The translations under genes were made by a program, and so were the position numbers. From assembly GCA_031271785.1 (NCBI GenBank), contig JAISUZ010000009.1, positions 1-39,133 on the forward strand: 39,133 nt of DNA, given 5' to 3'. Numbering within the stretch: position 1 is the stretch's first letter; every line of letters starts with the position of its first letter. Positions 1-39,133 of the stretch are shown here, piece after piece. This DNA is from Fibrobacter sp. (GTDB lineage: Bacteria; Fibrobacterota; Fibrobacteria; Fibrobacterales; Fibrobacteraceae). The notes under the pieces were generated by a model. It was not told where the DNA came from. It saw only the letters and a program-made list of their open reading frames with translations, and did no database searches.

Positions 1-288
1 ACTCCAAATCTTTTCTATCAGCTTTTCATCTTGCACGGTAAATGTATTGCCCAAAATCTTTTTGATAGAAATTTGAGTGTCGCAACCTGTTAACTTTGCT
101 TTGACATTCAAGCCGTTCAGGTATTCAGTTTTATCATCTTTTATTCCAACAATCTTTTTGACATCATTAAATCCAACTTGCTTTTGAATTTGCAGCTTGT
201 TGTATAATTCTAACTTTTGTTCGCTTGTCAAATAGCGATTGGCATATTGAAAAATATTTTTCTTCTTTTTCTCACTATACACTTCTTG
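1..288 (-). pseudogene. cas9: In-frame continuation of cas9 beyond the amber codon, cut by the window edge
   Basis: Reading minus-strand triplets from 288 down to 1, in exactly the frame of the upstream cas9 part, gives 96 codons with no stop. The translation begins QEVYSEKKKKNIFQYANRYL and keeps the same Lys/Glu/Asn-rich style. It continues naturally from the QINNLYITS sequence just before the TAG. The simplest reading is that one codon was changed to TAG in an otherwise intact gene. Whether the rest is intact cannot be judged from this window. Confidence 0.75.
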
Positions 289-1560
289 CTATGAAGTTAT
301 ATACAAATTGTTAATTTGCTTCCAACATCTAAATTTTTGGAATAATGGGTGTGAAGTGGCAACAACTTTTTCTTCTTTTTCAAAACGACAATTACTAATC
401 AATTCATCTTGAGATTTCAAAGGACGTTGATAGTAAATAACCTGTTCTTTTAAAATGTATTTCAAGCCTTTTTCAAAGGCTTGCTTTCTCAGCTGTTGTT
501 GCGATTCGCTTTTGCCCGGAAAAATGTAGTTGGCAATCTTTTCCAAAGTTTCTTTTGGACAACTATTTAATATTGGATAATATTGTGCTTGTGTTTCCCA
601 TACCTTATCAAATTCTTCTTTGTAACGATTGCGAAGAAATACCCTGTTTCTGATTTTTGTCCATTTACTTTGTCTCAAATCTTTCAAACGCAATTCACTG
701 ATAAAAAGATTTTCGTCTTTTAAAACCTTTTCATCAGCTTCCATTGCTTTACGCCAATTTGACTTTTGAGGTAAAGCGAAAACTACACTCGTTTCTTTAC
801 CTGTTTTTTTGTTTCTTCGGATTCTGATTTCAAATTCTTCCTCTTGTCCTATTTTTTCTTCTAAGTTCTGTAATTCTGTTTTGCCTTCTTTTTCCTCCTC
901 CTCTAATTTAACGGTTATTGTAAAATAATTTTGTTTTTCGCCTTTATTTTTTCCGCCCCTTACCGTAAAAGTTTCATCAGATTTTTCAACGCTCAAAACT
1001 TCCACTTTTTGCGTAATAACTTCATATGCTTTCTTTTTTGCATCGTCATCATTTGCATCTTCGTCTTGCTGCTTTTTCTTGGTATCATCGTCATTATTTC
1101 CGCCAGAGTAACCGCGAAGTTGATTGAATTTGTACAAGATTTTAGCAAAATCTTTCAATTCAATTTTGTTTTCCAACGCTTTAACGCATAATTCATATTG
1201 CCCCAAAGAGTCTAACTGCAAAGTTCCTTTTTTAATGGGCAAAAGTTCCAACTCTTGTAGTTTAGTTGGCTCAGGTACTCCATTTTTGAACTGAAATTGG
1301 TCGGGCAATATTCCTAATGTATGTAGAATAAAAAGTAATTTATTCCTACGCAATTTGTAGCGTTTGTTCATTTTTCGAGCAGTACGCTTTTCTCTGCGAG
1401 TTGCATTTTTAGTTATTCCAACTCCTTTTTCGTAGTCTTGTTTATCTGTTCCCATCGGAATGATACGACTGTTCATACCCAAAACTTTTTGAGTATCCTT
1501 ATCTACCAATGCCCAGCCGATGCTGTTCGTTCCTAAATCCAAACCAAGTATCTTTTTCAT
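289..1560 (-). CDS. cas9: Cas9, N-terminal part (type II-C-like), ending at an in-frame amber codon
   Basis: RNA-guided DNA endonuclease of a type II CRISPR system; only the first 423 codons lie before a TAG at 289-291. The N-terminus MKKILGLDLGTNSIGWA is the RuvC-I motif with catalytic Asp at residue 8. An arginine-rich bridge helix follows at about 50-76 (NATRREKRTARK, RYKLRR), then the recognition lobe. After LRGY (about 148-151) comes an unusual acidic/lysine tract rich in DDD and KKK (about 155-177). The ATG at 1560 is preferred over one five codons upstream because AAGGA precedes it at a normal distance. Complete family members are well over 1000 residues, so the HNH and RuvC-II/III parts lie beyond the window. 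The gene is visibly more AT-rich than its neighbours, which suggests horizontal acquisition. The stop may be a true inactivating mutation, a sequencing error, or a suppressed codon. Confidence 0.9.
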   Translation of the reverse strand: MKKILGLDLGTNSIGWALVDKDTQKVLGMNSRIIPMGTDKQDYEKGVGITKNATRREKRTARKMNKRYKLRRNKLLFILHTLGILPDQFQFKNGVPEPTKLQELELLPIKKGTLQLDSLGQYELCVKALENKIELKDFAKILYKFNQLRGYSGGNNDDDTKKKQQDEDANDDDAKKKAYEVITQKVEVLSVEKSDETFTVRGGKNKGEKQNYFTITVKLEEEEKEGKTELQNLEEKIGQEEEFEIRIRRNKKTGKETSVVFALPQKSNWRKAMEADEKVLKDENLFISELRLKDLRQSKWTKIRNRVFLRNRYKEEFDKVWETQAQYYPILNSCPKETLEKIANYIFPGKSESQQQLRKQAFEKGLKYILKEQVIYYQRPLKSQDELISNCRFEKEEKVVATSHPLFQKFRCWKQINNLYITS

Positions 1561-1594
1561 GAAAATTCCTTGCATTCAAAATATGTTTTCAATT

Positions 1595-1600
1595 ATTATA
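1595..1600 (-). promoter_or_regulatory. Probable -10 box (TATAAT) of cas9
   Basis: A perfect TATAAT on the minus strand, about 34 nt upstream of the cas9 ATG at 1560, in an AT-rich leader. No convincing TTGACA-like -35 element was found at 17 nt. This box differs from the TAnnTTTG boxes seen before most other genes in the window, which fits a foreign origin for cas9. Confidence 0.4.
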
Positions 1601-1675
1601 GATTTTTTCTCCCCAAAAGCAAAGTTTTGCAAACAAATCATTACTTTTTATGCATTTCCCGCGCCAGAGGCCGTG

Positions 1676-1709
1676 ACCCGAAGGGCGGAGACTTCGCAGA
1701 AGGCTCCGT
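1676..1709 (-). repeat. Dispersed ~34-nt repeat, copy A
   Basis: On the minus strand this reads ACGGAGCCTTCTGCGAAG, then TCTCCGCCCTTCGGGT. It matches 29971-30005 (plus) with two transitions, one transversion and one inserted base. The unit contains the inverted pair CGGAG/CTCCG. It lies in a GC-rich stretch beginning near 1655, next to the AT-rich cas9 leader. Confidence 0.7.
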
Positions 1710-1767
1710 GTTGCGCGGCAGATGCGAACTCGCTGAGTGAAGCAGATGCCCGCAAGATAGGACTCGG

Positions 1768-1786
1768 TCTCATGCAAAGCATGAGA
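1768..1786. repeat. Perfect 8-bp inverted repeat upstream of the KDPG aldolase gene
   Basis: TCTCATGC, loop AAA, GCATGAGA: a perfect 8-bp stem, 45 nt before the eda start codon. There is no T-run on either side, so it is not an obvious terminator. It could be an operator or an RNA hairpin; function unknown. Confidence 0.55.
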
Positions 1787-1818
1787 GGCGCCCAATTCTT
1801 TTCTATTCTCTTTTTTCC

Positions 1819-1826
1819 TATCTTTC
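1819..1826 (+). promoter_or_regulatory. TAnnTTTG-like box 4 nt before the eda start
   Basis: TATCTTTC (7 of 8 to TAnnTTTG) ends 4 nt before the ATG at 1831, and there is no Shine-Dalgarno sequence. This matches the layout before malQ, alkD and the small cysteine protein, and suggests a leaderless or nearly leaderless transcript. Confidence 0.35.
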
Positions 1827-1830
1827 TTTT

Positions 1831-38925: not shown

Positions 38926-39033
38926 TCAATCCTTAACGCAGCGAACCGAATAAGCGTTATGTTACCAATTCGCACCGGCATGAAAAACGTTCTCCATGTG
39001 CATAGCCCGCGGCCATCCGGACTCCGTATTGTT
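38926..39033 (-). pseudogene. Remnant of a FISUMP-domain protein C-terminus
   Basis: The minus strand reads NNTESGWPRAMHMENVFHAG, then ANW, a TAA (38962-38964), H, and NAYSVRCVKD followed by TGA at 38926-38928. The last ten residues are the conserved end of the Fibrobacter succinogenes major paralogous domain found in many secreted Fibrobacter proteins. The in-frame TAA, the missing body of the domain, and a REP-like hairpin directly upstream show it is degenerate. It is too short to be a gene but identifies the lineage. Confidence 0.7.
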
Positions 39034-39042
39034 CTTCATTGG

Positions 39043-39065
39043 ATTCTCGGATCCAGTCCGAGAAT
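39043..39065. repeat. REP-like hairpin element, copy 2
   Basis: ATTCTCGGA, loop TCCAG, TCCGAGAAT, then GACA: a perfect 9-bp stem. It shares its design with 3413-3433 and sits at the broken 5' end of the FISUMP remnant. Confidence 0.75.
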
Positions 39066-39133
39066 GACAAAGTATCTTTGATCGCCGCACGCGTCCCGCG
39101 TTCGCGATGGCACTTGTACAAATCCGAACTAAT

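What the first reader, a model, noticed from the sequence alone, without database searches (positions are those of the whole stretch)
1..1560. cas9 interrupted by a single in-frame amber codon
The TAG at 289-291 ends a clear Cas9 N-terminal lobe, yet the same frame stays open for the next 96 codons to the window edge with matching composition and no frameshift. A single recent substitution (for example CAG or AAG to TAG), a sequencing error, or amber suppression/recoding would each give this. If real, the locus is a freshly dead CRISPR-Cas9, or the organism reads TAG as sense here.
Basis: partly seen in the sequence, partly recalled or inferred. Interest (0 to 1): 0.6.

Follow-up and report, generated by a model that had tools for sequence, protein, structure and literature searches.

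The report
Recent amber mutation in Cas9 gene
A bacterium's otherwise complete CRISPR-Cas9 immune system carries one stop codon inside its cas9 gene, most likely a very recent knock-out mutation (or an assembly error) and not a changed genetic code, which is an ordinary kind of event.

Summary
In detail: a single in-frame TAG (289-291, minus strand) interrupts cas9. The window is contig C32 of a 112-contig genome. Its first 111 bases are identical to the last 111 bases of contig C11, so the rest of the locus could be read. The joined cas9 has 1429 codons with only this TAG (codon 424) and no frameshift. It is followed by intact cas1 and cas2, a tracrRNA-like anti-repeat with terminator, and an array of 22 identical 47-bp repeats with 21 spacers. 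The system is type II-C and Bacteroidota-like (60-75% identical to three Bacteroidales Cas9s).

The TAG falls on a lysine position shared by all three relatives, at the edge of a variable REC-lobe loop. The downstream 1005 codons show no sign of relaxed selection.

Recoding is rejected: the genome has release factor 1, 43 tRNAs with no CTA anticodon, and TAG ends about 12% of long ORFs, including one just upstream of dnaE.

Best reading: a very recent single-base nonsense mutation, possibly polymorphic, in an otherwise functional system. A consensus or assembly error is the main rival, because the site lies 178 bp from the shared contig end and no reads were available. Cas9 interference should be lost. 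Ordinary; low interest.

The parts
289..1560 (-). cas9, 5' part (RuvC-I, bridge helix, start of REC lobe; 423 codons before the TAG)
   Evidence: PADLOC Cas9 models E 1e-26 to 1e-12; aligns with Bacteroidales Cas9s; start MKKILGLDLGTNSIGWA
289..291 (-). in-frame amber codon TAG (codon 424), at a lysine position in the three nearest Cas9 relatives
1..288 (-). cas9 continuing in frame after the TAG; a possible but poor re-initiation GTG at 282
   Evidence: the gene runs on in contig C11 (L003:13865-16705, minus) to codon 1429
1..111 (.). 111-bp exact overlap with the end of contig C11:36594-36704, joining the two contigs inside cas9
1561..1830 (+). region upstream of cas9, up to the next gene (KDPG-aldolase-like ORF 1831-2451); contains a small dispersed repeat

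Best explanation
This is a complete, Bacteroidota-like type II-C CRISPR-Cas locus (cas9-cas1-cas2, tracrRNA, 22-repeat array) in which one recent single-base substitution turned a sense codon of cas9 into the stop TAG. Translation ends after 423 residues. The product has RuvC-I, the bridge helix and part of REC, but no HNH, RuvC-II/III or PAM-interacting region, so it should not cut DNA. Interference should be lost, and adaptation probably too, because type II adaptation is known to need Cas9. The rest of the locus has not yet decayed. The mutation may be polymorphic in the population. Shown: the TAG, the otherwise intact locus, and the standard genetic code. Inferred: that the base is real, recent, and abolishes function.
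For: One TAG in 1429 codons with no frameshift; cas1 (301 aa), cas2 and 22 identical repeats intact. The three nearest Cas9s have a lysine codon at that column. Identity to relatives is similar before and after the TAG (72-77% and 69-76% for the nearest two). dN is about 0.16-0.30 against dS above 1.5 or saturated, and a relative-rate count shows no excess change in this lineage downstream (37 against 72 unique changes). TAG is a normal stop: RF1, no CTA tRNA among 43, 12 of 99 long ORFs end in TAG. None of the listed Cas9 matches in 393 Bacteroidales genomes has an internal stop. Natural and laboratory CRISPR loss by nonsense mutation is documented (PMC3784566).
Against: No reads are available. 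The site is 178 bp from a contig end shared with another contig, so the consensus there could mix strains. No selective cause was found: there is no clear self-targeting spacer.
Confidence: 0.72

Rival explanations
1. Consensus error or strain chimera: the organism's cas9 is intact, and the TAG is an assembly or sequencing artefact near a break in the assembly graph.
For: Draft genome with 112 contigs. The contig breaks inside cas9 with an exact 111-bp end overlap. Two other contig ends tested show no such exact end-to-end overlap, so this looks like a local k-mer branch, that is, another very similar cas9 in the sample. Everything else in the locus looks functional.
Against: Substitution errors in assembled consensus are rare; the site is not in a homopolymer; a strain variant carrying the TAG would itself be a real nonsense allele.
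Confidence: 0.2
2. Functional despite the stop: low-level readthrough, or re-initiation at the GTG three codons downstream, giving two Cas9 halves that assemble (natural split Cas9) or a low dose of Cas9.
For: The TAG sits at the edge of a length-variable loop that tolerates insertions among relatives; the downstream part is fully conserved; a GTG lies 3 codons downstream.
Against: There is no Shine-Dalgarno-like motif before the GTG (CATAGCAAGAAGTG), whereas the true start has one (AAGGAA). No relative shows a split. A recent mutation predicts the same conservation.
Confidence: 0.07
3. TAG is read as sense genome-wide or by a suppressor tRNA.
For: An open frame after the TAG only.
Against: RF1 present, no CTA anticodon in 43 tRNAs, TAG ends about 12% of long ORFs; for example, a TAG separates a 625-aa gene from dnaE.
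Confidence: 0.01

Closest known systems
Type II-C CRISPR-Cas9 of Bacteroidales (L073 Lentimicrobium sp. MAG, L074 Bacteroidales Rs511_bin46, L112/G489)
   Same: Cas9 60-75% identical along its length; where the contig allows it to be seen (L073, L112), the same cas9-cas1-cas2 order and a downstream array
   Different: The relatives have an uninterrupted cas9; the repeat sequences differ
CbCas9 (PDB 8iyq), type II-C, 1442 aa
   Same: Best solved relative (E 3e-77); same length and domain order
   Different: Distant; no stop; the loop at the TAG position is of different length
Natural and selected nonsense mutants of CRISPR-Cas loci (e.g. csy2 in E. coli UTI89; cas10/cas6 in S. epidermidis escapers, PMC3784566)
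   Same: A single stop in an effector-complex gene of an otherwise intact locus
   Different: Those are type I and III loci; here no target that would explain the loss was identified

Membership tests
Type II-C CRISPR-Cas | Cas9 with RuvC and HNH nuclease domains | tested here: met
   RuvC_III and HNH_4 Pfam hits, PADLOC Cas9 hits on both halves; motifs DLGTNS, DHIIPKSR and HHAIDAL present, but the frame is interrupted by TAG
Type II-C CRISPR-Cas | cas1 and cas2 only, no csn2 (II-A) or cas4 (II-B) | tested here: met
   cas9-cas1-cas2 followed by the array; Cas1_II E 3e-114, Cas2_II E 5e-44; no further cas gene between cas2 and the array
Type II-C CRISPR-Cas | CRISPR array | tested here: met
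   22 identical 47-bp repeats, 21 different 29-30-bp spacers, L003:10695-12357
Type II-C CRISPR-Cas | tracrRNA with anti-repeat and terminator | tested here: met
   Anti-repeat at L003:12534-12558 on the opposite strand; predicted duplex with the repeat -32.5 kcal/mol, GC hairpin plus T-run downstream; expression not testable
Type II-C CRISPR-Cas | Full-length Cas9 translated | tested here: not met
   TAG at codon 424 under the standard code
Amber-recoding organism | tRNA with CTA anticodon, loss or change of RF1, TAG depleted as stop | tested here: not met
Old cas9 pseudogene | Several lesions and relaxed selection | tested here: not met
   One lesion; no downstream acceleration

The most novel reading that the evidence does not exclude
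A naturally split or stop-regulated Cas9: the amber lies in a permissive REC-lobe loop, and two fragments (423 and about 1002 residues) or rare readthrough product keep a low-dose immune system alive.
Probability: 0.06. Interest if true: 0.65.

Novelty: already known. Interest (0 to 1): 0.2.

Why it matters
If real, it is a snapshot of CRISPR-Cas9 loss at its first step: the effector is knocked out by one base while the adaptation genes, tracrRNA and array are still intact. That fits the known cost of immunity. It does not extend the genetic code or the Cas9 family.

Tried and rejected
Genome-wide TAG reassignment and suppressor tRNA: rejected. Old pseudogene: rejected. Self-targeting spacer as the cause of loss: no convincing match. 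The best non-array hits are parts of the repeat itself or chance-level. Phage targets of spacers: the hits in the phage collection come from similarity to CRISPR-like repeats in phages, as far as looked at, not from spacers. Two long open extensions after other TAGs (L048, L003) were followed up: the first is a separate gene (dnaE) with its own start, the second is a tandem histidine-kinase gene. Literature searches for natural cas9 amber mutants gave nothing on point.

Full report
Observation. The window's first 1560 bases hold the 5' part of a cas9 gene on the minus strand. In its frame, the codon at 289-291 is TAG. The window is contig C32 of a 2.28-Mb, 112-contig genome. Window 1-111 is identical to the last 111 bases of contig C11, so the gene could be followed past the window edge. 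The joined reading frame has 1429 codons before a TAA, with the TAG at codon 424 as its only stop and no frameshift.

Surroundings. In C11 (L003), cas9 is followed on the same strand by cas1 (301 aa) and cas2. Next comes an anti-repeat with a terminator hairpin that looks like the tracrRNA (predicted duplex with the repeat -32.5 kcal/mol). Then comes an array of 22 identical 47-bp repeats with 21 distinct spacers of 29-30 bp. This is a complete type II-C locus. The motifs around the catalytic residues of RuvC and HNH are present in the sequence. Cas9 is AT-rich (32% GC against 49% for the rest of the window). Its nearest relatives are Bacteroidales Cas9s (60-75% identity), while matched stretches of most Cas9s in the host's own family are only about 30-43% identical. 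A horizontal origin is likely (inference).

What the TAG replaces. In the three nearest relatives the aligned codon is a lysine codon, at the start of a loop whose length varies between relatives. The nearest solved structure, CbCas9 (PDB 8iyq), also differs in length there. By homology this lies in the REC lobe, so the N-terminal product would lack HNH, RuvC-II/III and the PAM-interacting region.

Age. Identity to relatives is similar before and after the TAG, dN is far below dS in both parts where dS could be computed, and this lineage has fewer unique changes downstream (37) than its closest relative (72). Nothing suggests relaxed selection, so the mutation, if real, is very recent. Of the listed Cas9 matches in 393 Bacteroidales genomes, none has an internal stop.

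Genetic code. Release factor 1 is encoded. The 43 tRNA genes found include no CTA anticodon. In about 160 kb examined, 12 of 99 long non-overlapping ORFs end in TAG. In one case the TAG separates a 625-aa gene from dnaE in the same frame. TAG is therefore a stop in this organism.

Error or mutation. The TAG is 178 bp from the 111-bp shared contig end. Such exact end overlaps typically mark a branch in the assembly graph (established knowledge of de Bruijn assemblers). The two other contig ends tested did not show one. A second, very similar cas9 may be present in the sample, so the TAG could be one strain's allele or a consensus artefact. Reads would decide, and none are available here.

Mechanism. 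Most likely a single-base nonsense mutation has knocked out Cas9 while leaving the adaptation module, tracrRNA and array untouched. Nonsense loss of CRISPR effectors is documented in the laboratory and in natural genomes, e.g. csy2 of E. coli UTI89 (PMC3784566). No spacer matching the genome itself was found that would explain selection for loss. A functional split by re-initiation at the GTG three codons downstream is not excluded, but it lacks a ribosome-binding motif and any precedent among the relatives.

Verdict. The finding is ordinary.

Noticed in passing
L003:9441-9462 (G000:C11:29440-29461): An exact 22-nt copy of the 3' half of the CRISPR repeat lies directly upstream of a 115-aa ORF (L003:9480-9827), 1.2 kb outside the array. 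It may be a repeat-derived promoter or an array remnant.
   Followed up: partly
L111 (G098:C136:1726-5783): Another same-phylum cas9, next to cas1 and cas2, is broken by a frameshift and an in-frame TAG in a contig with ambiguous bases; decayed or poorly assembled.
   Followed up: partly
L114:1507-1740 (OR089151.1, Riemerella phage vB_RanS_CRP19): An unannotated mini CRISPR-like array (three repeats starting GTTGTGAATTGCTTTCA, 78-bp period, similar to II-C repeats) in a phage genome; weaker, shorter matches appear in 11 further phage records.
   Followed up: partly
window 39000-39112: A dispersed repeat of about 113 bp at the window's right end has more than 50 partial matches across the genome, several 93-95% identical.
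   Followed up: no
window 1649-1712: A short dispersed repeat in the intergenic stretch upstream of cas9, with about 30 matches across the genome.
   Followed up: no
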